Virus record (IMG/VR): IMGVR_UViG_3300046454_000619
Coordinates: 1 to 20,896 of that record
Origin: a virus
Strand: one strand, 5' to 3'
Length of the DNA: 20,896 nt
Below the pieces are notes generated by a model. It was not told the origin of the DNA. It searched no databases and saw only the letters and a program-made list of their open reading frames with translations. This document shows positions 3,088-19,814 of the stretch, piece after piece (the stretch's first letter is position 1; each line of letters begins with the position of its first letter). The translations under genes were made by a program, and so were the position numbers.

Positions 3088-3163
3088 GGCAACGGTATAT
3101 TAAATATTTACGTTAAACGCTAGAATGAGTATAGTGGCTCATCTTTTCAAAAAGGTGAGAATG

Positions 3164-3949: not shown

Positions 3950-4385
3950 TCGACTCCGCGCCGCCGTCCTCCGTGAGGCCGAGACGTGGCTGTCGACGCC
4001 ATATCACCACATGGCCCGGGTCAAGGGCGCGGGGTGCGACTGCCTGACCTTCCTCGCCGAGGTCTACGCCGCCGCGGGCGTCATCGAGCCCGTGGGTAAG
4101 ATCCCCTTTTACCGCCTGGACTTCATGCGCCACCAGGACGACGAGACCTACCTGAACGGCCTCCTCGCGCGCGGCCACGAGGTCGCCGCCCCGCTCCCGG
4201 CCGACGTGGTGCTGTACAAGTGGGGCCGGGTATTCTCCCACGGGGCGATCGTCGTCGACTGGCCCCGTCGGATCATCCACGCCTCGCCGAGCCACTCCGG
4301 GGTCATCTGGGCGCACGGCACGCAGGGGCGGCTCGCGGGCCACGAGATGCGGTTCGTCTCGCCGTTCGCCGACGAGGCGGCCTGA
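3918..4385 (+). CDS. NlpC/P60-type tail peptidase (GTA gp14-like)
   Basis: 155 residues from a GTG start with GAGGAAGG about 8 bases upstream, both lying inside the end of the homing endonuclease gene. The catalytic Cys is most likely C42 in GAGCDCLTF, and His is H108 in FSHGAIVV, with a third polar residue at H121 (IIHAS). The motif order and length match the TIGR02219-like tail peptidases that follow DUF2163 in GTA-type modules. Role by family: a cell-wall hydrolase at the tail tip that helps penetration. The stop directly abuts the ATG of the next gene (TGA then ATG). Confidence 0.88.
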   Translation: MLKLEEKTATSRLRAAVLREAETWLSTPYHHMARVKGAGCDCLTFLAEVYAAAGVIEPVGKIPFYRLDFMRHQDDETYLNGLLARGHEVAAPLPADVVLYKWGRVFSHGAIVVDWPRRIIHASPSHSGVIWAHGTQGRLAGHEMRFVSPFADEAA

Positions 4386-6509
4386 ATGCCCTCCCTCTTC
4401 AAGCCCCTCAAGCCGTTCCTCCAGACGAACGCCTGGCAGCACCAGAACCTCAACTCGCTCCAGTACAACACGTCGATCGCCGGGTCGGTCATCCCGATTA
4501 TCTACGGGAAGACGCGCCAGTCGATCAACCTCATCGGGTTCGGGAACTTCTCCGGCCCCCAGGGTAAGAAGGGAAAGGTCGGCCCGCTGCCGATCACCGG
4601 GACCAACCAGAACGCTAAGGGCGGTAAGGGCGGCGGCGGGAGCAAGAAGGGGGCGACGGGCAAGAAGAGTCAGGATTTCTCGATCGACGTGTCGATGGGA
4701 ATCTGCCAGGGGCCGGCGAACATCGAGGCCAACAATTTCGTATGGGCGAGCGCCGGGGTCGCGTTCTTCCAGAGCGTTGGGCTGAACCTCTACACCGGGG
4801 CGGACGGTCAGGCCGCGGACCCGGTGATGGCCGGCCTGGGGCAGGTCGTCGGGTACTCGGGAACCCTCTACGTCACCGGGACCCCGATGGATCTGGGGTC
4901 GAGCCCGGTGCTCCCAAACTTGAGCTTTGAGGTTACGGGCTTCCTCAGCGGGACCGGCGGGACCCAGTACACGGTCGACGCCAACCCAGCGCAGGTCGTC
5001 GTGGACTTCCTCTCCAACGCGCGCTACGGGGCGGCCTTCCCCGCCGCGAACATCGCGGCGGACATCGGCACGGTCTACGGAGACTACTGCGTCGCGGCGC
5101 AGCTCCCGATATCGGTCTCGCTGAACGTCCAGAACATGGCCCACGAGTGGCTCGCGGGGCTCGCGAAGAACACGAACTCGGCGATCGTCTGGTCGGGGAA
5201 GATCCTGAAGATAATTCCCTACGGCGACCTCCAGTTGTCGGGCGGCGGCGTCACGTGGACCCCGAACATGGTGCCCGAGTACGACCTCGGCGACGACGAC
5301 TACCTGCCGTGGTCTCCCCACCTGGACGTCGACGCGCCACAGGAGGGCCAGGAAGACCCGGTGTTGATAACCCGGTCCAACCCGGCAGACGCGATCAACT
5401 GGCTGACGATCGAGTACCTGGACCGGAACAACTTCTACAACGCGACGGTCCTGCCGGTCTTCGACCAGAACTCGATCGACGCCTACGGGATGCGCTCCGG
5501 CGAGAACCTCCAGGGCCACATGTTCTGCAACGCGGCGTCGGCCCAGATATCAGCTCAGCTCTGGCTCCAGCGGCTCCTCTATATCCGCAACACCTACAAG
5601 TGGCAGATGGGGTGGCAGTTCGCGCTCCTTGAGCCGATGGACATCGTCCTGCTGACCGACTCGCGGAGCGGCCTGAACCAGCAGGCCGTCCGGATTACCT
5701 CGATCGAGGAAAACGAGAACGGGGATTTGACCTTCGAGGGCGAGGAGATCGTCATCGGGACGGCGCTGCCGGCCCCGACGCCGGTTTCGCCGACGCTTGA
5801 CACCGTTGCAAACAGCTTCTTTGATAATGCGATCAGCGGAAACAGTAACTTCTTCGGTGACCTCACACCGACCCCGCTCAGCACCACGAGCACCAACGAG
5901 ATCATCATCGTCGCGGTATATAACCAAGAAGCGTCTGGAGCCGGCGCTTCCTCGACCGTGGCGTCGATAACGAGTACCCCGTCGGGCCTCGTCTTCTCGC
6001 GCATCGGCGGCGGAAATTTCCACGACGCGGCGGCGGGCGGCACGCCTTGGCAGAACTTGGAGTTTTGGGCAGCCTTCTCTTCCGGAATCCTGCTCAACGA
6101 GATCCTGACGATCACCTTCCACGCGGTTGCCAATACGGTCTGCTGGTGCGCGTTCGGGATCAAGGGCGCTAACATTTCTTCTCCGATGGACCCGAATGGC
6201 TCGCTCCCCGCGGTCACGACGAGCCTGGTGCCAGCTAACGTCACCGCGACGATCAGCACGACGGACCCGAATGACATCCTAATCTGGGCGGCGGGTGGTC
6301 AAGGCGCGGGCGCGAACGCGGGACCGCCGGCCGGCTTCTCGCAGATCGTGGATAATTTCGCTAACCCGTTCGGGGCGGCGCCGACGGCGATTTTGTCGGT
6401 GAGCTATCAGGTAGTGGCCGCGACGCAGACCGGCCTGGTCCTACACGCAACGACCGCGTTCCCCAGCGCCGCGGGCGTCTGCGTGGCAACCGCGCTCAGG
6501 GGGTACTGA
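4386..6509 (+). CDS. J-like tail tip / baseplate hub protein, N-terminal portion with appended beta domain
   Basis: 707 residues. IAGSVIPIIYGKTRQSINLI (about 31-50) and a Gly/Lys-rich linker (about 57-95) are typical of the host-specificity protein J / GTA gp15 family. The middle (to about 460) carries further recognisable parts such as MAHEWLAGLAKNTNSAI, YLDRNNFYNATV and EPMDIVLLTD. Residues about 470-707 look like a beta-rich jelly-roll module rather than the usual continuation. The usual C-terminal region of single-chain homologues is in the next gene, so the protein appears split. The stop overlaps the next ATG by one base (TGATG). Role: central tail tip scaffold and part of host recognition. 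Confidence 0.85.
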   Translation: MPSLFKPLKPFLQTNAWQHQNLNSLQYNTSIAGSVIPIIYGKTRQSINLIGFGNFSGPQGKKGKVGPLPITGTNQNAKGGKGGGGSKKGATGKKSQDFSIDVSMGICQGPANIEANNFVWASAGVAFFQSVGLNLYTGADGQAADPVMAGLGQVVGYSGTLYVTGTPMDLGSSPVLPNLSFEVTGFLSGTGGTQYTVDANPAQVVVDFLSNARYGAAFPAANIAADIGTVYGDYCVAAQLPISVSLNVQNMAHEWLAGLAKNTNSAIVWSGKILKIIPYGDLQLSGGGVTWTPNMVPEYDLGDDDYLPWSPHLDVDAPQEGQEDPVLITRSNPADAINWLTIEYLDRNNFYNATVLPVFDQNSIDAYGMRSGENLQGHMFCNAASAQISAQLWLQRLLYIRNTYKWQMGWQFALLEPMDIVLLTDSRSGLNQQAVRITSIEENENGDLTFEGEEIVIGTALPAPTPVSPTLDTVANSFFDNAISGNSNFFGDLTPTPLSTTSTNEIIIVAVYNQEASGAGASSTVASITSTPSGLVFSRIGGGNFHDAAAGGTPWQNLEFWAAFSSGILLNEILTITFHAVANTVCWCAFGIKGANISSPMDPNGSLPAVTTSLVPANVTATISTTDPNDILIWAAGGQGAGANAGPPAGFSQIVDNFANPFGAAPTAILSVSYQVVAATQTGLVLHATTAFPSAAGVCVATALRGY

Positions 6510-12971: not shown

Positions 12972-14396
12972 TTAGCCCGGCAGCGCCTCGAACTCGTGGA
13001 CCCAGCGGATCACCTGTTCCGAGAACCCGTCCAGGTGGGTCCACCGCTCCCCGTAGCCGACGCCGTTCTGGTAGGCCGCGACGTTGATCAGGTACGCGCG
13101 GGCGGCGCGGGGCGGCGGCACGTGGTCGCGCGACTGCTCGTCGGTGATCACGATCAGCCGGTCCATATCGAGGTTCGCGAGGCTGCCCACCGCCGAGCCC
13201 AGCTGGGTTCCCTGGTGGGGCTGGCTGTCGATGATCTGGCGGATGCCGGATAGCCCCTGAGGAACCTCGTTGTTGAGCGCGACCAGGTGGTTCGAGAACG
13301 TATAGACGCGCACGTCGCCGTGGATCATAACCGCGAGCGCCGCTGCCGCGTCGATGCGGGAGAGGTCCGACTTGGCGGAGATCTTAGCGTCCATGGAGCC
13401 GGAGACGTCGACCAGCACGACCGTCCGGCCCGGTAGGACCGGGAGCTCGGCCACGGCGGCCCTCATGGCCGGGTCGAGGAACGGTACCATCTCCGGGCAC
13501 GCCCGCGCCGCCGCGACGTAGCGGAACGGCAGCACGCGGCGCGCCCCCTTGCGGGCGAGGATCGCGGACGAGACGAGGCTCGGGTCGACCCCGGCCTCGG
13601 TCATGTTCCGCAGGTTGCGCAGCAGCGCCAGATAGCCCAGCTTGCCGTCGCGCAGCTGACCCTCGAAGACGTCCTTCTTGTGCTGCTCCTTGGTGACGCC
13701 CTCGGCGGGGCCGGCGGACAGCCCCACCTCCCACGTGTCGGCGGACTTCACCTCGCCGGCGACGAGCTGTTTCCACAGCGCGGCCTGCTCGGCGTCCCTC
13801 GGCTTGGGGTGGACGAGGAACATCACGTCGCGGCCCTTGATCGGCTGGCCGGCCTCGCCGGAGGGCGAGAAATACTTCGCCAGCGCGTAGCGGTCGAACT
13901 TACCGAACGCCGCGGCCAGGCCCTTCTTGACCTGGGCTGACAGCTTCTTCTTGAGCGCCTTCGGCTCCACGCCGTTGGCCCGCGCGTAGACCGCGAGGAA
14001 CTCGCTCAGCTCGTCGGCGCGTTGGATAGTTTGGGAGATCGTATCGCTTACGATACGAGTTCCCGAACCGGTGCGCGCGAGGACGGCGCACAGCAGCAGC
14101 GGCACGTGCCGCAGGTTGAGGTGCGACCGCGCGTCGATCGCCAGCTGGGCGAGGACGGTCGGGGCCACCTGCCCGGCGAGGTCGGTGATCCGCGCCGCGA
14201 TGTCCTGGCCGGACTCGTAGAAGGTGTCCTCCCACAGGAGGCACGCGCAGACCGAGCGGCGCAGCGCCATTTCGGGCGAGATGAGCGCGGCCGGCGCGCC
14301 CTCGTGGGTGCGTAGCGTGTTGCTGGGCTCGAAGACGCGCGGCGGGGTTCCGCCCTGTGGCGGCAGCGCCGGCTTACGGGAGTTGAGTGCGGCCAT
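12972..14396 (-). CDS. Ro60 orthologue (TROVE domain plus vWA/MIDAS domain)
   Basis: 474 residues from ATG 14396, chosen because AGGAGG (14406-14411 on the complement) sits 9 bases upstream; ATG 14405 is an alternative. The N-terminal about 320 residues are the HEAT-like TROVE ring (PEMALRRSVCACLLWED, HLNLRHVPLLLCAVLA, RADELSEFLAVYARANG, YLALLRNLRNMTEAGV). The C-terminal vWA domain has a complete MIDAS motif DVSGSM (D330, S332, S334) and a later ITDEQS. Family knowledge: Ro60 is a doughnut-shaped protein that binds misfolded RNA ends and Y RNA; in Deinococcus, Y RNA tethers it to PNPase. Three structured RNAs with Y RNA features lie directly upstream on the same strand, behind promoter P1. 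Confidence 0.95.
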   Translation of the reverse strand: MAALNSRKPALPPQGGTPPRVFEPSNTLRTHEGAPAALISPEMALRRSVCACLLWEDTFYESGQDIAARITDLAGQVAPTVLAQLAIDARSHLNLRHVPLLLCAVLARTGSGTRIVSDTISQTIQRADELSEFLAVYARANGVEPKALKKKLSAQVKKGLAAAFGKFDRYALAKYFSPSGEAGQPIKGRDVMFLVHPKPRDAEQAALWKQLVAGEVKSADTWEVGLSAGPAEGVTKEQHKKDVFEGQLRDGKLGYLALLRNLRNMTEAGVDPSLVSSAILARKGARRVLPFRYVAAARACPEMVPFLDPAMRAAVAELPVLPGRTVVLVDVSGSMDAKISAKSDLSRIDAAAALAVMIHGDVRVYTFSNHLVALNNEVPQGLSGIRQIIDSQPHQGTQLGSAVGSLANLDMDRLIVITDEQSRDHVPPPRAARAYLINVAAYQNGVGYGERWTHLDGFSEQVIRWVHEFEALPG

Positions 14397-14448
14397 TGAG
14401 ATCATCCTCCTGGGGTGATCGACCGCTGGGAGAGGCACCGGGGGAACG

Positions 14449-14565
14449 GGCGGTAACGGGTTGTGTGGACCCCCTTGCGGGGGCACGCCGGGATTTGAAC
14501 CCGGACCCACGGCTTGATGGGCCGTTGCTCTACCAAAGAGCTTCGATGCAACCGTAACCTACGCC
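14449..14565 (-). ncRNA. Candidate Y RNA 3 (YrlA-like, with tRNA-like module)
   Basis: The ends pair: 5' GGCGTAGGTTACGGTTG (14565-14549) with 3' CAACCCGTTACCGCC (14463-14449). This gives helices of 3, 3, 4 and 3 bp separated by a GUA bulge on the 5' strand, a U-U mismatch and one bulged C. Inside is a tRNA-like module without acceptor stem: D arm GCTC/GAGC with GG in the loop (14541-14527), anticodon-like arm ACGGC-CCATCAA-GCCGT (14525-14509), canonical T arm CCGGG-TTCAAAT-CCCGG (14504-14488), then a hairpin CCCCC-GCAA-GGGGG with GNRA loop (14483-14470). A D, anticodon and T arm set on a long closing stem is what tRNA-mimicking bacterial Y RNAs show. It ends about 50 bases before the Ro60 start codon. 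Confidence 0.75.
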
Positions 14566-14595
14566 ACCCGGCGTCTATCCAGCGATCGAGGAACA

Positions 14596-14690
14596 AGCGG
14601 AAGCGGTACACCCACCGAGGTGGGTTCTGGGTTCGAACCAGATAGGATGCCCGAGGGCATCTTTTCACCGAAGTACCCGCGTCCTACGCC
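14596..14690 (-). ncRNA. Candidate Y RNA 2 (reduced tRNA-like module)
   Basis: 5' GGCGTAGGACGCGGGTAC (14690-14673) pairs with 3' GTACCGCTTCCGCT (14609-14596) as helices of 3, 3, 4 and 3 bp, with the same GUA bulge, a C-U mismatch at the same place as in copy 3, and one bulged G. The interior has a short D-like arm (TTCGGTGAA), a hairpin GATGCC-CTCG-GGCATC (14661-14646), a canonical T arm TCTGG-TTCGAAC-CCAGA (14642-14626) and an abutting hairpin ACCCAC-CTCG-GTGGGT (14625-14610). It is followed by TGTTCCTCG, matching the 3' flanks of the other copies. Confidence 0.75.
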
Positions 14691-14719
14691 ATCGACCTAA
14701 AACTCTGCGCTCGGGAACA

Positions 14720-14786
14720 GGCGGGATCGAGAGCGGGGCCGAAGCCCCAGGCGCTGTTCAAGTGCGATGAACTCGATCCCTACGCC
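14720..14786 (-). ncRNA. Candidate Y RNA 1 (minimal copy without T arm)
   Basis: 5' GGCGTAGGGATCGAG (14786-14772) pairs with 3' CTCGATCCCGCC (14731-14720): 3 bp, the GUA bulge, then 9 perfect bp. Inside are a small hairpin TTCA-TCGCACT-TGAA and GGGGC-TTCG-GCCCC with a UUCG tetraloop (14748-14735). There is no D or T arm. It starts about 8 bases downstream of the expected start of transcription at P1, and its 3' flank TGTTCCCGAG matches the other copies. It looks like a Ro-binding stem without the tRNA mimic. Confidence 0.6.
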
Positions 14787-14800
14787 ACGAGCACGGGGGG

Positions 14801-14829
14801 TTTATACTCTCCTTCGGCGGATAAGTAAA
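14801..14829 (-). promoter_or_regulatory. Promoter P1 for the Y RNA / Ro60 transcript
   Basis: On the complement: TTTACT (-35, 14829-14824), a 17-base spacer, TATAAA (-10, 14806-14801). The expected start is about 14794, just before candidate Y RNA 1. The layout, including the preceding T/A-rich tract, GGTTTACTT and CCCC after the -10 box, repeats at P2. Confidence 0.75.
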
Positions 14830-14856: not shown

Positions 14857-15468
14857 TTACGCCAACTCCACGTTATGATACAACCATGAGCCAAAATCTT
14901 CCCGCACGTCGTTCGCGAGGAACTCCAGGCCCGCGCGCAGCAGCTCCGCCGGGGTTGGTGCCCGCGGCGGCTTGAGCGGCCGGAGGCCCGACGCGCGCCG
15001 GGCCGAGTACCGCGGAAGGCTGTCCCGCTTGCGCTTGTTGCACTCGACGCACGCCGACACGATGTTGTCCCACCGCGTCTCGCCACCGCGCGAGCGCGGT
15101 ACGACGTGGTCGTACGTCAGCTCGGCTTCGTCGAATCGCTCCCCGCAGTACTGGCACCTATACCGGTCGCGCAGGAGGATCGAGCGCCGGCAGAACTTCG
15201 GCTCGGCGTCGACGCAGGCGTATGCACGTAGCATCATCACTTTCGGCACGGCGATGGTCGTGCTCGGTGAGCGAAAGAACGCGCCGGGCCACTCCTCGAC
15301 CACGATCGCCTTGTCCAGCCACGCGGCCGTGACGGCGTCGGCGGCCGAGATTAGGTTCAGCGGCCACGTGGATAGCGGACGGCCGTCGGCATTGAGCACC
15401 AGGGTGCGCAGCGTCGTCGGGTGGCGCAGCGAACTTCGCTCTTTGCTCTTAGCCCACGTGTGGATCAT
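14857..15468 (-). CDS. HNH endonuclease (C2C2 zinc type) between tRNA array and Ro60
   Basis: 203 residues. The N-terminal part (TLVLNADGRPLSTWPLNLISAADAV...) is the conserved leader of a common bacterial and phage HNH family. The core has C105-x2-C108, then YDHVVPRSRGGETRWDNIV (D120, H121, N135) and C140-x2-C143 followed by basic residues. Typical roles are nicking or cutting DNA, as a free-standing homing enzyme or in packaging or recombination. The ATG lies two bases after the encoded CCA of tRNA-Thr(CGT), and its only visible ribosome site (AGGAG) lies in that tRNA's acceptor stem. It ends 28 bases upstream of promoter P1. GC-rich like the phage backbone, so probably long resident. Confidence 0.9.
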   Translation of the reverse strand: MIHTWAKSKERSSLRHPTTLRTLVLNADGRPLSTWPLNLISAADAVTAAWLDKAIVVEEWPGAFFRSPSTTIAVPKVMMLRAYACVDAEPKFCRRSILLRDRYRCQYCGERFDEAELTYDHVVPRSRGGETRWDNIVSACVECNKRKRDSLPRYSARRASGLRPLKPPRAPTPAELLRAGLEFLANDVREDFGSWLYHNVELA

Positions 15469-15470
15469 GA

Positions 15471-15545
15471 TGGTGCTCCTGGAGAGAATCGAACTCGTCG
15501 TCTACCGCTTACGAGGCGGTTGTCCTGCCACTGAACGACAAGAGC
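15471..15545 (-). tRNA. tRNA-Thr(CGT)
   Basis: Acceptor GCTCTTG/CAGGAGC, A73 and CCA encoded. Anticodon loop CTCGTAA in a 5-bp stem ACCGC/GCGGT. T loop TTCGATT, but the T stem has only three good pairs. The acceptor strand also holds the ribosome site of the following HNH gene. Confidence 0.85.
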
Positions 15546-15547
15546 GT

Positions 15548-15622
15548 TGGTGCCCCGAGAGGGACTCGAACCCCCGACTCCCCGGTTAAAGGCCGGGAAC
15601 TCTGCCGCTGAGTTACCGAGGC
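15548..15622 (-). tRNA. tRNA-Lys(TTT), C33
   Basis: Acceptor GCCTCGG/TCGGGGC with wobbles, A73, CCA encoded. Anticodon arm CCCGG-CCTTTAA-CCGGG; position 33 is C instead of the near-universal T. T arm GGGGG-TTCGAGT-CCCTC is canonical. Confidence 0.88.
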
Positions 15623-15624
15623 GG

Positions 15625-15701
15625 TGGTGCGCAGTCTCGGATTCGAACCGAGAGGACCCGGTTTTTGAAACCAGGATGTCTACCAGTTGCATCAACTGCG
15701 C
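15625..15701 (-). tRNA. tRNA-Leu(CAA), short variable loop
   Basis: Acceptor GCGCAGT/ACTGCGC, A73, CCA encoded. Anticodon arm CTGGT-TTCAAAA-ACCGG. T arm CTCGG-TTCGAAT-CCGAG. D loop AACTGGTA is leucine-like, but the variable loop is only five bases where bacterial leucine tRNAs have a long arm. Confidence 0.82.
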
Positions 15702-15703
15702 CC

Positions 15704-15780
15704 TGGTGCGCACCGGGAGATTCGAACTCCCACTGGGCCGGGCTTAAACCGGCTGCCTCTACCAGTTGGGCTACGTGCGC
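15704..15780 (-). tRNA. tRNA-Leu(TAA), short variable loop
   Basis: Acceptor GCGCACG/GGTGCGC (last pair mismatched), A73, CCA encoded. Anticodon arm GCCGG-TTTAAGC-CCGGC. T arm GGGAG-TTCGAAT-CTCCC. Variable loop five bases. Close relative of the adjacent CAA copy (same acceptor start and D loop), so probably a duplication. Confidence 0.82.
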
Positions 15781-15782
15781 GG

Positions 15783-15857
15783 TGGTGGTCTCGCCGGGAG
15801 TCGAACCCGGATCTTAGGTTTCGGAGACCTACGCTCGGTCCATCGAGCTGCGAGACT
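15783..15857 (-). tRNA. tRNA-Arg(CCG)
   Basis: Acceptor AGTCTCG/CGAGACC (first pair mismatched), A73, CCA encoded. Anticodon arm TAGGT-CTCCGAA-ACCTA, D arm GCTC/GAGC, T arm CCGGG-TTCGACT-CCCGG. Its 5' 29 bases are also the 3' end of an HNH reading frame. Confidence 0.88.
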
Positions 15858-16293
15858 TAAGTTGTAAGCCAAGCTTAGTGAGTCTGCCTAATGCCCCTTT
15901 ACGGCCGCCTATTTTTAACCGTTCAAACGCTTCTGAACTAATATTCAGAGTTCCCCAAGTATCAGTCTGAGAATGACAGTTTGGGCAAAGACCTTGAAGA
16001 TTTTCACGCGAATTATCGTTTTTATTTCCGTTCAAGTGATCAAGTTCTAACCTAATAGGACGACCATTCCACTCAGTTATACCACAAATTAAGCACGCAT
16101 TTGATTGTTCTTCAAATACACGCTTTCTCCGTTTAGTTCTACCTAGCATTTCAAATGTACGTGGCAGCGTTATACGTTTTATTTTTCTAATCCTACGCGG
16201 GTTATTAAATTTAGCCGAACAAGATTGGCCGCAAAATTTGCCATTTCGATTTTTATAAGGTAATTCTTTACCGCAGTTTTGGCATATTTTCAT
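15829..16293 (-). CDS. HNH homing endonuclease inside the tRNA array, AT-rich
   Basis: 154 residues; ATG preceded by GAGAGG. The N-terminus is a small zinc motif (C4-x2-C7, C21-x3-C25: MKICQNCGKEL...FCGQSC). The HNH core has C67-x2-C70, LELDHLNGNKNDNSRENLQGLCPNCH (D85, H86, N98) and C103-x2-C106-H107. Such proteins are free-standing homing endonucleases common in phages. The DNA is far more AT-rich than the flanking tRNAs, so it is a recent insert. Its last nine codons and stop run into tRNA-Arg(CCG), so its C-terminus is partly dictated by tRNA sequence. No remnants of a split gene are visible. Confidence 0.9.
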   Translation of the reverse strand: MKICQNCGKELPYKNRNGKFCGQSCSAKFNNPRRIRKIKRITLPRTFEMLGRTKRRKRVFEEQSNACLICGITEWNGRPIRLELDHLNGNKNDNSRENLQGLCPNCHSQTDTWGTLNISSEAFERLKIGGRKGALGRLTKLGLQLKSRSSMDRA

Positions 16294-16312
16294 ATATACC
16301 TCTCGATAAAGA

Positions 16313-16384
16313 TGGAACCCCGCCCGAGGATCGAACTCGGCGCTGCTGGCTTAGAAGGCCTGCGTGCGTCCCAGCGCGCGGGGT
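16313..16384 (-). tRNA. tRNA-Arg(TCT), short D arm
   Basis: Acceptor ACCCCGC/GCGGGGT, T73, CCA encoded. Anticodon loop CTTCTAA in CAGGC/GCCAG (one A-A mismatch). T arm CCGAG-TTCGATC-CTCGG. Only 72 bases because the D region is 15 bases with a weak stem. Confidence 0.8.
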
Positions 16385-16386
16385 AT

Positions 16387-16458
16387 TGGCGCCCCCTGAG
16401 AGAGTCGAACTCCCCTTCCCGGGTTCGTAGCCCAGGTGCCGGGTCCGCCGGAGAGGGC
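16387..16458 (-). tRNA. tRNA-Arg(ACG), short D arm
   Basis: Acceptor GCCCTCT/AGGGGGC, G73, CCA encoded. Anticodon arm CTGGG-CTACGAA-CCCGG; A34 would need deamination to inosine by host TadA to read CGC. T arm GGGAG-TTCGACT-CTCTC. 72 bases with a reduced D arm. It directly abuts the next tRNA. Confidence 0.82.
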
Positions 16459-16532
16459 TGGTCGAGCGGACGGGATTTGAACCCGCGTTGGACAGATTGA
16501 AAATCTGTGGTCCTACCTTAGACGACCGCTCG
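16459..16532 (-). tRNA. tRNA-Glu(TTC)
   Basis: Acceptor CGAGCGG/CCGCTCG, A73, CCA encoded. D arm GTCT/GGAC, anticodon arm ACAGA-TTTTCAA-TCTGT, T arm GCGGG-TTCAAAT-CCCGT. Canonical throughout. Confidence 0.92.
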
Positions 16533-16534
16533 GT

Positions 16535-16786
16535 TTACCAGTAGTAGATGTGCGGCTTCTTCTCGACCGGCCAGACGATTCCCTCCGGGTCGCGCCCCTG
16601 CATCACCAGGACGACCGCGGCGCGGGTCCGGCGACGACGCGGCCGGGTGTGAAACGTGATGTCCCAGGCCCGCGGCCACTGGGAGAGCCAGTGGTAGCGG
16701 TCCCAGTCCGGCTGGCGCCGACGATGCTTGTCGCGTCCGCGGCAGTGGCGGGTCGTCCGCGGGTATCCGCGTTTGTAGTTCGCCAT
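16535..16786 (-). CDS. Small very basic phage protein of unknown function
   Basis: 83 residues; ATG preceded by AGGAGG at good spacing. The sequence is rich in Arg, His and Trp (MANYKRGYPRTTRH, HRRRQPDWDRYHWLSQWPRAW, HTRPRRRRTRA, ending KKPHIYYW). The high positive charge suggests nucleic-acid binding, but no named domain is recognised. It sits between tRNA-Glu and a 140-base structured gap and ends two bases before the tRNA start. GC content matches the backbone, and the strong start signals make it a real gene. Confidence 0.75.
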   Translation of the reverse strand: MANYKRGYPRTTRHCRGRDKHRRRQPDWDRYHWLSQWPRAWDITFHTRPRRRRTRAAVVLVMQGRDPEGIVWPVEKKPHIYYW

Positions 16787-16926
16787 GAGTAGCCTCCTGT
16801 GGGTAAGCTATGACATGACGAACCTCCTTTCATGGACGCGGGGCGACCCGAGGCGTTACCCAGAGCCGAGTCACCAAAAGTAACGAGCCGCCCGTCGGCG
16901 ACGGCTCCGGGGCTCTGTCCGCTTGT
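16787..16926 (-). other. Intergenic segment with hairpins and a two-codon leader frame
   Basis: No tRNA found. On the complement there are inverted repeats GAGCCG/CGGCTC with inner CCGTC-GCC-GACGG, AGAGCC/GGCTCT, and GTTAC/GTGAC. Near the downstream gene a strong ribosome site (AAGGAGG) precedes ATGTCATAG, a two-codon frame, before the gene's own AGGAGG. This could be the 5' leader of the 83-residue gene. Confidence 0.4.
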
Positions 16927-17000
16927 TGGTGGGTCCCCGAGGAATCGAACCCCGATCTGGAGTGTGTAGGACTCCGGCCCTGCCATTAGACGAGGGACCC
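16927..17000 (-). tRNA. tRNA-Val(TAC), C33
   Basis: Acceptor GGGTCCC/GGGACCC, A73, CCA encoded. D arm GTCT/AGGGC region with GG; anticodon arm GGAGT-CCTACAC-ACTCC with C at 33. T arm CGGGG-TTCGATT-CCTCG. Confidence 0.88.
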
Positions 17001-17004
17001 TGTA

Positions 17005-17076
17005 TGGCGCCGACGCGGGGACTCGAACCCCGGCTCCCTCGCTTAGGAGGCGTGGGCGCGATCCGTCGCCGTCGGC
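17005..17076 (-). tRNA. tRNA-Arg(CCT), short D arm
   Basis: Acceptor GCCGACG/CGTCGGC, G73, CCA encoded. Anticodon loop CTCCTAA in CACGC/GCGAG (one A-A mismatch). T arm CGGGG-TTCGAGT-CCCCG. 72 bases; D arm GCGA-CGGA-TCGC. Confidence 0.82.
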
Positions 17077-17081
17077 GGTAT

Positions 17082-17159
17082 TGGTCGGAGTGAGAGGATT
17101 CGAACCTCTGGCAACCCGCTTCCAGGGCGGGGACTCTGGCCTGACTGAGCTACACTCCG
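17082..17159 (-). tRNA. tRNA-Pro(TGG), C33
   Basis: Acceptor CGGAGTG/CACTCCG, A73, CCA encoded. D arm GCTC/GAGT, anticodon arm CCCGC-CCTGGAA-GCGGG with C33, T arm AGAGG-TTCGAAT-CCTCT. Confidence 0.88.
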
Positions 17160-17162
17160 TAA

Positions 17163-17237
17163 TGGCGCGCCCGACCGGGATCAAACCGGCCTGACCCGGT
17201 AGACAGCCGGGTGTCCTCTTCAGATGACTACGGGCGC
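17163..17237 (-). tRNA. tRNA-Asp(GTC)
   Basis: Acceptor GCGCCCG/CGGGCGC, G73 (expected for Asp), CCA encoded. Anticodon arm CCCGG-CTGTCTA-CCGGG. T loop TTTGATC has T in place of C56. Confidence 0.88.
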
Positions 17238-17242
17238 TTTGA

Positions 17243-17317
17243 TGGTGCGCGCGGAGGGACTCGAACCCCCGTCCTACTGGTTAAGGGCCAGCAGCTCTGC
17301 CGCTGAGCTACGCACGC
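17243..17317 (-). tRNA. tRNA-Lys(CTT), C33
   Basis: Acceptor GCGTGCG/CGCGCGC, A73, CCA encoded. D arm GCTC/GAGC, anticodon arm GCTGG-CCCTTAA-CCAGT with C33, T arm GGGGG-TTCGAGT-CCCTC. Related to tRNA-Lys(TTT), which also has C33. Confidence 0.88.
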
Positions 17318-17324
17318 GTGAAAC

Positions 17325-17398
17325 TGGTACCCCCACCCTGTACTGACCAGGGATTTCGCGGTTATCGGCCGCGCTCTCTACCATTGAGATATAGGGGC
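17325..17398 (-). tRNA. tRNA-Ile(GAT), C33 and non-canonical T loop
   Basis: Acceptor GCCCCTA/TGGGGGT, A73, CCA encoded. D arm TCTC/GAGA, anticodon arm CGCGG-CCGATAA-CCGCG with C33. T stem CCCTG/CAGGG is perfect but its loop is GTCAGTA, lacking the TTC motif. Confidence 0.78.
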
Positions 17399-17400
17399 GT

Positions 17401-17486
17401 TGGTGGGGAAAGGCTGAGTCGAACAGCGCGCCCGTAGGCGACCGGGTTACAGCCGGCTTACCGCGTCCCGCGGCTGACACTTCCCC
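17401..17486 (-). tRNA. tRNA-Tyr(GTA), class II
   Basis: Acceptor GGGGAAG/TTTCCCC, A73, CCA encoded. Anticodon arm GCCGG-CTGTAAC-CCGGT, long variable arm (CGCC..GGGCG) as expected for bacterial Tyr, T loop TTCGACT. Confidence 0.87.
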
Positions 17487-17487
17487 G

Positions 17488-17562
17488 TGGTGCCGTCGGC
17501 GGGGATCGAACCCGCAGCCTCCCGCTTACCAAGCGGATGCACGCCCATCGTGCTGCGACGGC
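17488..17562 (-). tRNA. tRNA-Thr(GGT)
   Basis: Acceptor GCCGTCG/CGACGGC, A73, CCA encoded. Anticodon arm TCCGC-TTGGTAA-GCGGG, T arm GCGGG-TTCGATC-CCCGC. Canonical. Confidence 0.9.
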
Positions 17563-17563
17563 T

Positions 17564-17653
17564 TGGCGGACAGCCTCGGGCATGATCCGAATCCCCTCTC
17601 GGGGACACACCGCTTAGCAGGCGGGTCCGGCAACCGTACCGGCTGTGCTGTCC
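17564..17653 (-). tRNA. tRNA-Ser(GCT), non-canonical T loop
   Basis: Acceptor GGACAGC/GCTGTCC, G73 (serine), CCA encoded. Anticodon loop CTGCTAA, long variable arm (TCCCC..GGGGA). T stem TTCGG/CCGAG encloses ATCATGC rather than a TTCRA loop. Confidence 0.8.
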
Positions 17654-17657
17654 TAAT

Positions 17658-17746
17658 TGGCGGGCGACCGAGGTCCTGATCCCCATGCCCCGGAGGGCAC
17701 CACCGGTGTTCGAAGCCGGGCCGCGCGCTCGCGCGGTTGATCGCCC
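17658..17746 (-). tRNA. tRNA-Ser(CGA), non-canonical T loop
   Basis: Acceptor GGGCGAT/GTCGCCC, G73, CCA encoded. Anticodon loop TTCGAAC in CCGGC/ACCGG (last pair C-A), long variable arm TGCCC..GGGCA. T stem TGGGG/CCTCG with loop ATCAGGA. Confidence 0.78.
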
Positions 17747-17749
17747 TTA

Positions 17750-17838
17750 TGGAGGAAGGCGGGTGGTGTCGATCCCCACCCCTTTGCGGGGCCACCGGGT
17801 TTCAAAGCCGGGCCGCGAGCCGTCGCGGTTCACCTTCC
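17750..17838 (-). tRNA. tRNA-Ser(TGA), degenerate T arm
   Basis: Acceptor GGAAGGT/GCCTTCC, T73, CCA encoded. Anticodon loop TTTGAAA, long variable arm GGCCCC..GGGGT. The T arm is atypical: GGTGG/CCACC with a nine-base loop. Confidence 0.74.
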
Positions 17839-17996
17839 GTAAACCTTCTTCCCCTGGCTAGGATTATGAGTCCGCGCGCCAGCGCACCAAGCAGGTTTAG
17901 AGCCCACCAGCACTCGGGGCTGACTAGGCCCCTATGGGGAGTTGGGGTGGGACCCTCTGCCCAGTAGTCAGCCGGGCCGCTTTCCCACCGTGCCTC
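17839..17996 (-). other. 158-base unresolved structured gap between two serine tRNAs
   Basis: No complete tRNA fits. On the complement there is a 9-bp inverted repeat GGCTGACTA/TAGTCAGCC, a 7-bp pairing GGTGGGA/TCCCACC, and a part closed by TAAACC/GGTTTA (next to the Ser(TGA) 5' end). That part contains CTGGC/GCCAG and a methionine-like hairpin GGA-CTCATAA-TCC, but has no room for a T arm. It may be decayed tRNA genes or another small RNA. Confidence 0.4.
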
Positions 17997-18085
17997 TGGA
18001 GGATGCCGTCGCTGCCGACGCGAACGCCCTCCCGGGCGCCAACCGGCTTCCGACCGGTGCCGGGGGCCGCCCCGGTTCAGCATCC
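17997..18085 (-). tRNA. tRNA-Ser(GGA), C33, degenerate T arm
   Basis: Acceptor GGATGCT/GGCATCC, T73, CCA encoded. Anticodon arm ACCGG-TCGGAAG-CCGGT with C33, long variable arm GCGCCC..GGGCG. The T arm region lacks a TTCRA loop. Fourth serine acceptor, completing NCU/UCN coverage with the other three. Confidence 0.74.
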
Positions 18086-18091
18086 ATTAAC

Positions 18092-18168
18092 TGGTGCGCA
18101 GGGAGGGAGTCGAACCCTCAAAACTCCACGGTCTGAACGTGGCGACTTTACCGTTTGCCCACCTGCGC
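18092..18168 (-). tRNA. tRNA-Leu(CAG), short variable loop
   Basis: Acceptor GCGCAGG/CCTGCGC, A73, CCA encoded. Anticodon arm CCACG-TTCAGAC-CGTGG, T arm GAGGG-TTCGACT-CCCTC, D loop with ACGGTAAA. Variable loop six bases, no long arm. Confidence 0.83.
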
Positions 18169-18175
18169 GGTGGCT

Positions 18176-18251
18176 TGGTACGCGCGGGGCGACTCGAACG
18201 CCCACTTGCGAGGCCCTCGACCTCGTGCCTCTACCGTTGGGCTACGCGCGC
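18176..18251 (-). tRNA. tRNA-Leu(GAG), C33, short variable loop
   Basis: Acceptor GCGCGCG/CGCGCGT, A73, CCA encoded. Anticodon arm CGAGG-TCGAGGG-CCTCG with C33, T arm GGGCG-TTCGAGT-CGCCC, variable loop five bases. Confidence 0.83.
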
Positions 18252-18256
18252 ATAAT

Positions 18257-18333
18257 TGGTCGTCCCAGGGGGAATCGAACCCACCTCCTCCGCCTTGAGA
18301 GGGCGGCGTCCTAGGCCGGTAGACGATGGGACG
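18257..18333 (-). tRNA. tRNA-Glu(CTC)
   Basis: Acceptor CGTCCCA/TGGGACG, A73, CCA encoded. D arm GTCT region, anticodon arm CCGCC-CTCTCAA-GGCGG, T loop TTCGATT. Abuts tRNA-Gln(TTG). Confidence 0.88.
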
Positions 18334-18407
18334 TGGAAGGCCTCCAGGGATTCGAACCCCGATACACGGCATCAAAAACCGTGGGCTTGCCGTTAGCCGA
18401 GAGGCCC
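18334..18407 (-). tRNA. tRNA-Gln(TTG)
   Basis: Acceptor GGGCCTC/GAGGCCT (first pair G-U), T73, CCA encoded. Anticodon arm ACGGT-TTTTGAT-GCCGT, T arm CGGGG-TTCGAAT-CCCTG. Confidence 0.88.
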
Positions 18408-18551
18408 GTCGTCGCTGGTAGGGGATGCGGGAATCGAACCCACGTCCTCCGGGTCAGAGCCGGATGCACTGGCCGCTGTGCTAATCCCCATCAATTCGTT
18501 GCGCTGCTCCTCGGCCAGGGCCAGGAGGCGCTCGATCTCGTCCCGCGTCAT
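18393..18551 (-). CDS. Short protein (52 aa) running through tRNA-Gln genes
   Basis: ATG 18551 has AGGAGG at ideal spacing. The first 20 codons (MTRDEIERLLALAEEQRNEL) look like a charged amphipathic helix. The frame then reads through the whole of tRNA-Gln(CTG) and stops inside tRNA-Gln(TTG), so the last about 30 residues are dictated by tRNA sequence. It may be a real small helix protein whose natural stop was lost. Function unknown. Confidence 0.4.
   Translation of the reverse strand: MTRDEIERLLALAEEQRNELMGISTAASASGSDPEDVGSIPASPTSDDGPLG
18416..18490 (-). tRNA. tRNA-Gln(CTG)
   Basis: Acceptor TGGGGAT/ATCCCCT with an open first pair (U-U); a weak 1-72 pair is typical of glutamine tRNAs. A73, CCA encoded. 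Anticodon arm TCCGG-CTCTGAC-CCGGA, T arm GTGGG-TTCGATT-CCCGC. A short reading frame runs through it. Confidence 0.88.
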
Positions 18552-18666
18552 CGCGCCCTCCTCTCAAGATCGTGTTGAACCGGCACGGGCCTCCGGAGGC
18601 CGGGCATCGGAGCTCGTGGAGCTCCGGGTCGTAGGTCGCGCATGGCGTTAGGAGGTCCGACGGCAT
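18481..18666 (-). CDS. Short Cys-containing protein (61 aa) in the tRNA array
   Basis: ATG 18666 is preceded by GGAGGT at good spacing; an upstream in-frame ATG at 18699 lies within tRNA-Thr(TGT) and is unlikely. The sequence MPSDLLTPCATYDPELHELRCPASGGPCRFN contains three cysteines that could bind zinc. The second half overlaps the next short frame out of register and is Gly/Arg/Pro-rich. Function unknown. Confidence 0.4.
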   Translation of the reverse strand: MPSDLLTPCATYDPELHELRCPASGGPCRFNTILRGGRDDAGRDRAPPGPGRGAAQRIDGD

Positions 18667-18683
18667 ATCGCTTACCTCCGAAT

Positions 18684-18760
18684 TGGTGCCCACGGTCACG
18701 ATTCGAACGGACGACTTCCGGCTTACAAAACCGGCGCTCTGCCGACTGAGCTACGCGGGC
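18684..18760 (-). tRNA. tRNA-Thr(TGT)
   Basis: Acceptor GCCCGCG/CGTGGGC, A73, CCA encoded. D arm GCTC/GAGC, anticodon arm CCGGT-TTTGTAA-GCCGG, T loop TTCGAAT with an imperfect stem. Third threonine isoacceptor. Confidence 0.87.
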
Positions 18761-18766
18761 GAATAA

Positions 18767-18931
18767 GCATACGCGGGCTACGCGATGGGACTTTCATGCG
18801 TCGTGTAATTCCAAGCGGATTAGATGGTACTCTTAGGCCGCCCTCGTGCCCCGCAGTCTCCGCTCACCGGGGTACCGCCCGTACGGACAACCGCTTCCCT
18901 GTACACGCTCAGGGCGTAGCCCACGTATGCT
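18767..18931 (-). ncRNA. 165-base structured RNA closed by a 17-bp helix, unknown type
   Basis: GCATACGTGGGCTACGC (18931-18915) pairs with GCGTAGCCCGCGTATGC (18783-18767). The single imperfect pair is a G-U wobble on the minus strand but a C-A mismatch on the plus strand, which points to a minus-strand RNA. Inside are CCCTG/CAGGG, AAGCGG/CCGCTT, GGTAC/GTACC and CCCCG/CGGGG pairings. It lies tightly between tRNA-His and tRNA-Thr(TGT) and does not fit a tRNA, tmRNA or RNase P RNA by eye. Confidence 0.55.
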
Positions 18932-18934
18932 TAC

Positions 18935-19010
18935 TGGGGTGAGGTGCGGGTGCTGGCCCCGCTGCTTCGCCTTCACAGGGCGACGTGTCCTCTGGTTCAC
19001 TAACCTCACC
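18935..19010 (-). tRNA. tRNA-His(GTG), encoded G-1, non-canonical T loop
   Basis: Extra 5' G pairs with C73, the histidine identity element: GGTGAGGT/ACCTCACC then CCA. Anticodon arm TCGCC-CTGTGAA-GGCGA, D arm GTG/CAC. T stem GCGGG/CCCGC is perfect but the loop is GCCAGCA. Confidence 0.82.
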
Positions 19011-19011
19011 A

Positions 19012-19084
19012 TGGAGCCACGCTGGCGAATCGAACGCCTTGTCCCGGGTTGCAACCGAGCGCCTCTCCATTTGGCTTGCGCGGC
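19012..19084 (-). tRNA. tRNA-Cys(GCA)
   Basis: Acceptor GCCGCGC/GCGTGGC, T73 (expected for Cys), CCA encoded. D arm GCC/GGC, anticodon arm CTCGG-TTGCAAC-CCGGG, T loop TTCGATT. Confidence 0.88.
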
Positions 19085-19085
19085 T

Positions 19086-19158
19086 TGGCACCGGCGGAGC
19101 GGAATTGAACCCTCCTGCAGGGGTTTGGAGTCCCTGATGTTCACCAGAACGCGCCGGT
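19086..19158 (-). tRNA. tRNA-Trp(CCA)
   Basis: Acceptor ACCGGCG/CGCCGGT, G73 (expected for Trp), CCA encoded. Anticodon loop CTCCAAA in AGGGA/CCCCT (last pair A-C). T loop TTCAATT, T stem with one bulged base. Confidence 0.87.
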
Positions 19159-19161
19159 AAT

Positions 19162-19237
19162 TGGCTCCCATCCCAGGTACCGCCCCTGGCCGCATCGGAT
19201 TAACAGTCCGCGCCGTTCGCTTGCTCGGTCGATGGGA
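19162..19237 (-). tRNA. tRNA-Asn(GTT), non-canonical D and T loops
   Basis: Acceptor TCCCATC/GATGGGA, G73, CCA encoded. Anticodon arm GCGGA-CTGTTAA-TCCGA. T stem CCAGG/CCTGG perfect with loop GGCGGTA. The D arm CCG/CGG has loop AGCAAGCGAA without the usual GG, so both tertiary-contact partners changed together. Confidence 0.8.
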
Positions 19238-19342
19238 ATGAAACTGTTGAGTGAGAATTTTACATAGCCCCCACTCACGGCTCTCATCGCGACGCTTCAA
19301 CCCAAGCTATCCTAGGTCCGGGGTGTATACGAGTCGCGAAAC
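19238..19342 (-). other. 105-base gap with short hairpins
   Basis: No tRNA or gene recognised. On the complement TCGCGAC/GTCGCGA pairs over about 40 bases, and GTGAG/CTCAC encloses ATGTAAAATT. It may be spacer, a processing element or a decayed tRNA. Confidence 0.35.
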
Positions 19343-19417
19343 TGGAGCGGACGGCGGGAATCGAACCCGCTACCGGGTGCTTGGAAGGCACCGACTCTGC
19401 CAATGAGTTACGCCCGC
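19343..19417 (-). tRNA. tRNA-Gly(TCC)
   Basis: Acceptor GCGGGCG/CGTCCGC, T73, CCA encoded. Anticodon arm GGTGC-CTTCCAA-GCACC, T arm GCGGG-TTCGATT-CCCGC. Canonical. Confidence 0.9.
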
Positions 19418-19418
19418 G

Positions 19419-19494
19419 TGGTGCCGAGACCTGGGATCGCACCAGGATGTCGCCGCCTTCAACGGCGCGCGAGGACTACCTTTGCTATCTCGGC
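19419..19494 (-). tRNA. tRNA-Phe(GAA)
   Basis: Acceptor GCCGAGA/TCTCGGC, A73, CCA encoded. Anticodon arm CGCCG-TTGAAGG-CGGCG. T stem CCTGG/CCAGG with loop TGCGATC, in which position 55 is G instead of T. Confidence 0.87.
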
Positions 19495-19499
19495 GAAAT

Positions 19500-19576
19500 T
19501 GGAGGCAGGGAGCGGATTCGAACCGCTGACCTCGAGGTTATGGGCCTCGCGCGCTGCCAGGCTGCGCCACCCTGCG
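19500..19576 (-). tRNA. Initiator tRNA-fMet(CAT), C33
   Basis: Closely follows bacterial initiator tRNA: CGCAGGGTGG start, GCAGCCTGGCAGC D arm, and an unpaired C1-C72. Anticodon arm CGAGG-CCCATAA-CCTCG has C33, and only two of the three usual G-C pairs at the loop end. T arm AGCGG-TTCGAAT-CCGCT, T73, CCA encoded. Confidence 0.82.
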
Positions 19577-19584
19577 TCAAAATC

Positions 19585-19660
19585 TGGTCCCGGTGGGTGG
19601 AGTCGAACCAACCGACCTAGCCGTTATGAGCGGCCCGATCTTCCGCTGATCTACACCGGG
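19585..19660 (-). tRNA. tRNA-Met(CAT), elongator (or Ile2)
   Basis: Acceptor CCCGGTG/CACCGGG, A73, CCA encoded. Anticodon arm GGCCG-CTCATAA-CGGCT. T loop TTCGACT. With a paired first position it is not an initiator; a lysidine-modified isoleucine tRNA for AUA cannot be excluded by sequence. Confidence 0.85.
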
Positions 19661-19661
19661 G

Positions 19662-19735
19662 TGGAGCGGCCATGGGAAATCGAATCCCACCCTTCTCGTT
19701 GGCAACGAGATGCTCGACCTCCGAGCTGTGGCCGC
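19662..19735 (-). tRNA. tRNA-Gly(GCC)
   Basis: Acceptor GCGGCCA/TGGCCGC, T73, CCA encoded. D arm GCTC/GAGC, anticodon arm TCTCG-TTGCCAA-CGAGA, T arm TGGGA-TTCGATT-TCCCA. Confidence 0.92.
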
Positions 19736-19739
19736 AATT

Positions 19740-19814
19740 TGGTGGAGAACGAGGGAATCGAACCCTCATGACGCGATCTTGCAAGGATCGCCGCCGCCCC
19801 AGCAGCCGTTCCCC
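19740..19814 (-). tRNA. tRNA-Ala(TGC)
   Basis: Acceptor GGGGAAC/GTTCTCC, A73, CCA encoded. Anticodon arm CGATC-CTTGCAA-GATCG, T arm GAGGG-TTCGATT-CCCTC. First tRNA of the array after the leader; the canonical G3-U70 pair of alanine is present (third pair G-T). Confidence 0.9.

What the first reader, a model, noticed from the sequence alone, without database searches (positions are those of the whole stretch)
12972..14829. A phage-encoded Ro60 operon with its own promoter beside a tRNA array
P1, the three RNAs and the Ro60 gene form one minus-strand unit. Known roles of Ro60 are binding of misfolded RNA and, with Y RNA, directing PNPase. A phage that makes a large and odd tRNA set could use this for tRNA quality control, or to redirect host RNA decay. 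The MIDAS motif is intact, so the protein is probably functional.
Basis: partly seen in the sequence, partly recalled or inferred. Interest (0 to 1): 0.85.

Follow-up and report, generated by a model that had tools for sequence, protein, structure and literature searches.

The report
Phage Ro60 with three Y RNAs
This phage carries a gene for the ring-shaped RNA-binding protein Ro60 and, directly in front of it, three small RNAs that look built to sit on that ring, two of which imitate parts of transfer RNAs; such sets occur in many phages and bacteria, but how phages use them is untested.

Summary
The gene and the three RNAs are real. A 474-aa TROVE-vWA (Ro60/Rsr) gene lies at 12972-14396 (-) with an intact MIDAS; three tandem Y RNAs lie directly upstream at 14794-14706, 14698-14582 and 14573-14435. 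A covariance model built only from other viral loci finds them at 48.0, 51.0 and 33.0 bits; the next window match scores 11.3. The model finds Y units in 80 of 82 viral Ro60 loci, training loci included, and in 0 of 49 viral records without Ro60. Promoter P1 can be read but failed the consensus scan. Phage Ro60 and phage Y RNAs are already in print, so this is a new member. The tRNA-array link is partial: Ro60 contigs are richer in tRNAs than controls, but 30 of 65 have none, and three tRNA-rich relatives of CcrColossus lack Ro60. Own-tRNA quality control therefore cannot be the general role. New details: the third Y RNA has its tRNA body in natural order (2 of 456 units on a strict test); in relatives, 112 of 191 units with tRNA-like arms are circularly permuted, many with an anticodon arm. 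Likely function, inferred: a ring with exchangeable tRNA-like handles redirecting RNA decay or repair.

The parts
12972..14396 (-). Ro60/Rsr gene (TROVE ring + vWA domain), 474 aa, stop codon included
14406..14411 (-). Shine-Dalgarno AGGAGG, 9 nt before the ATG
   Evidence: sequence
14435..14573 (-). Y3: Ro60-binding stem with a tRNA-like head in natural order (D-arm 14541-14527, anticodon-like arm 14525-14509, T-arm 14504-14488), then a CCCCC-GCAA-GGGGG hairpin; most of the acceptor stem, CCA and U33 are missing
   Evidence: R1 33.0 bits, E 8.2e-8; Rfam tRNA 40.5 bits over model positions 6-65 of 71; order test
14582..14698 (-). Y2: Ro60-binding stem with a hairpin, a T-arm (14642-14626) and a closed acceptor-like hairpin; no D-arm found
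   Evidence: R1 51.0 bits, E 4.7e-13; fold; classifier
14706..14794 (-). Y1: Ro60-binding stem with simple hairpins, no tRNA-like part found
   Evidence: R1 48.0 bits, E 3.5e-12; fold; classifier
14801..14829 (-). possible promoter P1, TTTACT-17-TATAAA, predicted start at the first base of Y1
   Evidence: read by eye; not reported by the consensus scan
14857..15468 (-). HNH endonuclease gene upstream, same strand (neighbour, probably not part of the unit)
   Evidence: Pfam HNH_5 4.2e-16
15471..19814 (-). array of 26 tRNA genes, all with encoded CCA (neighbour)

Best explanation
The locus makes a phage Ro60 ribonucleoprotein. Ro60 is a HEAT-like ring closed by a vWA domain. The three Y RNAs are transcribed together as the leader of the Ro60 mRNA and cut apart. 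Each has the same base-paired foot (GGCGUAG...GUUCC, with an upper 9-bp stem) that docks on the ring, and a different head: plain hairpins, a T-arm minihelix, or a tRNA body. The heads act as handles for enzymes that normally handle tRNA or structured RNA (in Deinococcus the Y RNA tethers PNPase), so the ring can gate, deliver or hold structured or damaged RNA for decay or repair during infection. Shown here: gene, predicted fold, three feet, heads, linkage to Ro60. Inferred: binding, cutting of the leader, partner enzymes, benefit to the phage.
For: Profile and fold match Ro60: PDB 9kop and 9l5y (9l5y is titled Ro60 of Thermus phage phiLo) E 2.5e-58 over 10-434 of 437 profile positions; TM 0.70 for 9kop, 0.65 for D. 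radiodurans Rsr, 0.57-0.64 for vertebrate Ro60 (model pLDDT 86). Feet: 90% of pair cells kept, 15 of 17 pairs with two-sided changes, covariation 0.762 vs 0.226 shuffled (units were picked partly by pairing). Linkage: 303 of 303 units outside the window lie on the Ro60 strand; 217 of 228 are upstream, the last one ending within 150 nt of the Ro60 match in 61 of 77 loci; strong units in 0 of 49 records without Ro60 and in 10 of 10 with it. Two or more units in 69 of 82 viral loci. Cellular Ro60 loci have the same arrays: 52 of 54 searched, of 80 fetched. RtcB RNA ligase in 10 of 45 Ro60 records. In Listeria phage CKA15 three highly transcribed regions precede an Rsr-like gene (PMC12282133, passages).
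Against: No expression or binding data for this phage. The promoter did not pass the scan. PNPase as partner is borrowed from Deinococcus. Five isolates with more distant Ro60 gave no unit at E 0.01 (crAss001, RHph_TM21B, HGTV-1, Satis, pv27), nor did viral loci L036 and L131, so the foot is not universal or the model is too narrow. 35 of 45 Ro60 records lack RtcB (other repair genes were not sought).
Confidence: 0.62

Rival explanations
1. Decoy or sensor for tRNA damage: the tRNA-like heads compete for, or bind, host anticodon nucleases or tRNA fragments released by host defence, protecting phage and host tRNAs; the tRNA array is a second answer to the same attack.
For: Of 51 distinct 41-nt head segments from relatives, chosen by T-arm and spacing alone, 42 form at least 4 of 5 anticodon-stem pairs, and of these 40 have U33 and 40 a purine at 37 (pair counts). 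tRNA-rich contigs are enriched among Ro60 phages. PMC7790460 (passages) suggests YrlA might inhibit an anticodon nuclease. RtcB in 10 of 45 Ro60 records.
Against: In the window itself the anticodon-like loop of Y3 lacks U33, and Y1 and Y2 show no anticodon arm. Ro60 contigs often have no tRNAs (30 of 65). No nuclease was tested. In the anticodon helix only 2 of 5 pairs show two-sided changes.
Confidence: 0.2
2. One reading: quality control of the phage's own large tRNA set.
For: In the window the unit adjoins 26 tRNAs. In RHph_TM21B and Atuin the Ro60 gene lies inside the array. In 23 records of at least 40 kb with 3 or more tRNAs, 98 tRNAs lie within 5 kb of Ro60 against 42.0 expected if evenly spread (tRNAs cluster, so no p-value). 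TROVE genes in 20 of 29 archaeal tRNA clusters (PMC6333295, passages).
Against: 30 of 65 Ro60 contigs have no tRNA; three tRNA-rich relatives of CcrColossus have no Ro60; L043 (CcrColossus), L138 and L025, with 28-31 tRNA matches each, have none within 5 kb of Ro60, and L027 has one.
Confidence: 0.1
3. Autoregulatory leader only: Ro60 binds its own mRNA leader to control its own synthesis, and the Y units are not released as separate RNAs.
For: The last Y unit ends 38 nt before the ATG here and within 150 nt of the Ro60 match in 61 of 77 loci.
Against: Arrays reach 8 units (CcrColossus) or 12 (L041, spread over 4 kb), and heads are elaborate, which a simple leader switch does not need.
Confidence: 0.06
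4. Y3 and Y2 are decayed tRNA genes at the edge of the array, not Y RNAs.
For: ARAGORN and Rfam call Y3 a tRNA.
Against: Both carry the full foot on either side (E 8.2e-8 and 4.7e-13); Y3 lacks most of the acceptor stem, and CCA.
Confidence: 0.02

Closest known systems
Bacterial Rsr-Y RNA modules (D. radiodurans Rsr/Y RNA/PNPase; Salmonella rsr-yrlBA-rtcBA)
   Same: Ro60 gene with adjacent Y RNAs, a base-paired foot, a tRNA-like domain in YrlA (PMC8394870, PMC7790460 passages)
   Different: Phage-borne; three units in the leader; no RtcB gene found beside it; third RNA has the tRNA body in natural order and lacks most of the acceptor stem
Ro60 of Thermus phage phiLo (PDB 9l5y; 9kop has nearly the same match)
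   Same: Near whole-length profile match E 2.5e-58; TM 0.68 (9l5y) and 0.70 (9kop)
   Different: About 26% identity in the structural alignment
Ro60 of Xanthomonas phage Olaya, Caulobacter phage CcrColossus, Brevundimonas phage Kabachok
   Same: 52-57% identity; Y arrays of 4, 8 and 3 units at E 0.01
   Different: Other phages; Olaya has one tRNA match in its whole genome
Listeria phage CKA15 ncRNAs and Rsr-like CKA15_055 (PMC12282133)
   Same: Three highly transcribed regions upstream of an Rsr-like gene (passages)
   Different: In Listeria phage A511, a relative by recall, neither TROVE nor R1 matched, so homology is not shown here

Membership tests
Ro60/Rsr protein | TROVE domain | tested here: met
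   PF05731 2.6e-8 over cut-off, but only 48 residues align; near whole-length profile hits to the phage Ro60 structures
Ro60/Rsr protein | HEAT-like ring closed by a vWA domain with MIDAS | tested here: met
   predicted model and Foldseek; MIDAS residues invariant in 35 sequences
Ro60/Rsr protein | binds Y RNA and misfolded RNA ends | not testable with these tools
   needs protein and RNA
Bacterial Y RNA | encoded beside Ro60, same strand | tested here: met
Bacterial Y RNA | 5' and 3' ends pair into a conserved Ro60-binding stem | tested here: met
   identity of this motif with the motif mapped in Deinococcus or Salmonella was not compared
Bacterial Y RNA | at least one Y RNA with a tRNA-like domain | tested here: met
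   Y3 Rfam tRNA 40.5 bits; Y2 T-arm
YrlA-type head (D, T and acceptor arms, as described in PMC8394870) | D, T and acceptor arms present | tested here: not met
   Y3 has D, anticodon-like and T arms but most of the acceptor stem is missing; Y2 has a T-arm and acceptor-like hairpin but no D-arm found
Functional tRNA (Y3) | acceptor stem, CCA, U33 | tested here: not met
   Rfam match covers positions 6-65 of 71; loop CCAUCAA
RNA repair operon rsr-yrl-rtcBA | RtcB beside Ro60 | tested here: not met
   ORFs beside Ro60 are an HNH gene and a plus-strand ORF with no Pfam match; the record is a fragment and RtcB was not sought elsewhere in it

The most novel reading that the evidence does not exclude
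Phage and related bacterial Ro60 loci are adaptor arrays: one ring, several Y RNAs with one foot and interchangeable tRNA-derived heads (none, T-arm minihelix, a whole tRNA permuted between positions 26 and 27 with a working-looking anticodon arm, or a tRNA body in natural order as in window Y3). Different heads recruit, or act as decoys for, different tRNA-reading enzymes, such as anticodon nucleases or modification enzymes, and may be renewed from tRNA genes.
Probability: 0.28. Interest if true: 0.8.

Novelty: new member of a known kind. Interest (0 to 1): 0.5.

Why it matters
Ro60 genes are annotated in many phages (89 records matched), but in the papers I found (searches; passages only) none shows a function in a phage. 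The mapped feet, heads and unit borders give exact RNAs to blot, pull down and mutate, and the tRNA-like heads could make ideas of tRNA-based defence and counter-defence testable. Rfam 15 called no Y RNA in the four sources tested (window, L011, L016, L043), and programs call some units tRNAs, so annotation can miss these arrays.

Tried and rejected
A first regular-expression search found only 26 units and one of the three in the window; replaced by a paired score and a covariance model. Four single-protein control queries for viral contigs gave 4, 29, 9 and 0 loci; the terminase alignment gave 80 and the tail alignment 9. The control set is therefore of other phage lineages and shorter (median 20.2 vs 39.9 kb). 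No tRNA in the window is an obvious source of the Y3 head; the best alignments have 43 identities over its 60 bases. Listeria phage A511 was checked as an analogue of CKA15: no TROVE or R1 match. A FastTree of 197 Ro60 proteins put the window on a long branch with no supported partner; viral and cellular sequences are mixed, with at least 12 (cellular) to 16 (viral) label changes forced by supported branches, which fits repeated exchange, but some cellular loci may be prophages. The search of controls with profile A1 had no positive control in that call, though A1 found 473 viral stretches. The whole-record R1 search uses a loose first look: it missed the weak unit of phage Atuin that the direct search found and listed 1 unit each in L112 and L003 where the direct search has 3, so 0 of 49 is a statement about strong units. 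The shuffle null of the anticodon-arm test was made only on the 78 segments that scored, and 22 of the 163 were too short to test.

Rows dropped: L013, L014, L037, L097, L133, L137, L165, L166 as duplicates from the Y RNA alignments (other near-copies such as L161/L164 stayed in); 32 of the 77 loci searched from the tRNA count (45 of 77 given); 26 of 80 cellular loci, and 1 of its 151 matches from the alignment; 40 of 80 loci, 3 of 9 and 6 of 9, and all, from the control set (controls under 10 kb were left out); the three 221-224 kb records from the 46 used in the Fisher tests.
Full report
What is there. The window is a 20,896-base virus record. On its minus strand a 474-aa ORF, 12972-14396, follows a perfect Shine-Dalgarno. 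It matches Pfam TROVE above cut-off over a short stretch and vWA_Ro60 just below it. A profile of 35 viral sequences, the window included, hits Ro60 structures 9kop and 9l5y over nearly its whole length, and vertebrate Ro60 and D. radiodurans Rsr over parts. The predicted structure (pLDDT 86) matches 9kop, 9l5y (titled Ro60 of Thermus phage phiLo), Rsr and vertebrate Ro60. The MIDAS D330, S332, S334 and D419 are invariant in the alignment. The protein is therefore a Ro60 of normal build.

The three RNAs. By eye, the 420 bases upstream hold GGCGTAG...GTTCC three times. The same arrangement recurs upstream of Ro60 in other viral contigs. A score of motif plus pairing, written after seeing these, found 42 units at 20 or more upstream of 41 Ro60 genes (three duplicate contigs included), against 1.05 in shuffled sequence. 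Twenty-three compact units from other loci were aligned. The two proposed helices are kept in 90% of cells, with two-sided changes in 15 of 17 pairs and a covariation score of 0.762 against 0.226 when shuffled and at most 0.208 when slid; the units had been picked partly for pairing, which inflates this. The covariance model R1 built from them found the three window units at 51.0, 48.0 and 33.0 bits, with the next match at 11.3. The window was not in the training set.

How general. With R1, 306 units were aligned from 119 sources, the window included; 109 sources had at least one. These include the training loci and related sequences. The 303 units outside the window all lie on the Ro60 strand. 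Of 82 viral loci, 80 have at least one unit, 69 at least two and 43 at least three. Of 228 units in 80 loci, 217 lie upstream of Ro60. CcrColossus has 8 and contig L041 has 12. Whole-record searches found units in 10 of 10 Ro60 records and in 0 of 49 records without Ro60. Fifty-four of the 80 cellular Ro60 loci fetched (Caulobacterales, Acidobacteria and others) were searched, with 151 matches; of the 150 aligned, 52 of 54 loci hold at least one. So tandem Y RNA arrays go with this Ro60 subfamily in cells and phages alike. Rfam 15 at gathering threshold found nothing in three such loci and only tRNAs in the window.

Heads. Y1 shows no tRNA-like part. Y2 has a T-arm with a closed acceptor-like hairpin. 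Y3 matches the Rfam tRNA model over positions 6-65 of 71, that is D, anticodon and T arms in natural order with most of the acceptor stem missing. ARAGORN reports it as tRNA-Pro. In the other loci the common tRNA-like head is permuted: T-arm, closed acceptor hairpin, D-arm. By a simple classifier, of 306 units (viral contigs, isolates, window) 66 are clearly permuted, 42 have a T-arm only, 195 have none, one has a D-arm only, and 2 are in natural order: window Y3 and L167:7882-8012. In the cellular set 46 of 150 are permuted, 30 have a T-arm only, 4 a D-arm only, 70 none, and none is strictly natural; two with a weak D-arm, L293 and L297, look natural to me.

Anticodon arms. Of 163 units with a T-arm, 78 have a hairpin of 4-5 bp with a 7-nt loop before it, 59 of them with U33 and a purine at 37; on shuffles of those 78 segments the rates are 19% and 2%. 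On 51 distinct segments of one length, chosen by T-arm and spacing alone, 42 form at least 4 of 5 anticodon-stem pairs, and of these 40 have U33, 40 a purine at 37 and 28 U36. With both arms counted together covariation is 0.480 against 0.177 shuffled; the anticodon helix alone has 85.9% of cells paired, but only 2 of its 5 pairs show two-sided changes. Many permuted heads thus look like whole tRNAs opened between positions 26 and 27. PMC8394870 (passages) describes the YrlA head by D, T and acceptor arms. A search for Y RNA, tRNA-like, anticodon and Rsr together found two papers; the passages I read in them do not mention an anticodon arm in Y RNA. The primary papers on YrlA are not held, so I do not claim this is unpublished.

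Transcription. TTTACT-17-TATAAA ends at 14801, which would start RNA at Y1's first base. The scan reports no promoter. The upstream HNH gene and tRNA array lie on the same strand, so read-through is also possible.

tRNA arrays. Whole-record tRNA counts were made for 49 and 45 Ro60 records and 49 controls. For Ro60 contigs of 10-75 kb (65, duplicates dropped) and controls (46): 3 or more tRNAs in 18 of 65 vs 0 of 46; lower bound 11 of 65; none in 30 of 65. At 25-75 kb: 13 of 49 vs 0 of 19, lower bound 7 of 49. Eight of nine isolates that I picked have 13-34 tRNA matches, but these are large phages and my choice. Three records of 221-224 kb, NrdB relatives of CcrColossus, have 23-26 tRNAs and no Ro60 match. 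Ro60 lies inside or beside the array in some phages (window; RHph_TM21B; Atuin) and not in others. TROVE genes in 20 of 29 archaeal tRNA clusters are in print (PMC6333295, passages). The link is thus likely real but partial, and lineage was not controlled.

What is known. Phage TROVE or Ro60 proteins are in print (PMC7824862, PMC7765460, passages) and match 89 of 50,697 phage records by this query. A passage in PMC12282133 says Y RNAs were identified in diverse bacteria and in mycobacteriophages, citing Chen and colleagues 2014; from recall, that paper reports Y RNAs near Ro60 in more than 250 bacteria and phages, with a tRNA-like domain in at least one per species; it is not held. The same passage proposes Y RNAs and an Rsr-like protein in a Listeria phage, with strong transcription. 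The window is therefore a new member of a known kind. What it adds is a dated example with a three-unit leader and the natural-order head of Y3.

Mechanism. Tethering of a nuclease by the Y RNA is reported for Deinococcus (PMC4726728, PMC8394870, passages). I infer the same geometry here, with several heads offering several partners. RtcB in 10 of 45 Ro60 records and the damage-induced rsr-yrlBA-rtcBA operon of Salmonella (PMC7790460, passages) make RNA repair or a tRNA-damage response the nearest functional setting. Every step past the sequence is inference.

Noticed in passing
L126 (contig G071): RtcB at contig 3147-4289: RtcB RNA ligase directly downstream of the Y RNA-Ro60 unit in a viral contig, like the bacterial repair operon.
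   Followed up: partly
L043:5179-5246 (Caulobacter phage CcrColossus): The annotated tRNA-Gln lies inside a Y RNA unit (5174-5341) and is probably a misannotation.
   Followed up: partly
permuted Y RNA heads, alignment A10: 28 of 42 anticodon-arm heads have U36 (GUU, UGU, GCU, CUU and others), the type that carries t6A37 in real tRNAs (recalled); sequences are related, so no test was made.
   Followed up: no
L041:3071-7123: Twelve Y RNA units spread over 4 kb upstream of one Ro60 gene.
   Followed up: no
window 15829-16293 (-): A second ORF with a weak HNH match (HNH_3, under its cut-off), in an AT-richer stretch inside the tRNA array.
   Followed up: no
L045, L046, L047, L048, L049: More distant phage Ro60 genes (crAss001, RHph_TM21B, HGTV-1, Satis, pv27) show no unit of this Y RNA model at E 0.01; they may have another foot.
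   Followed up: partly
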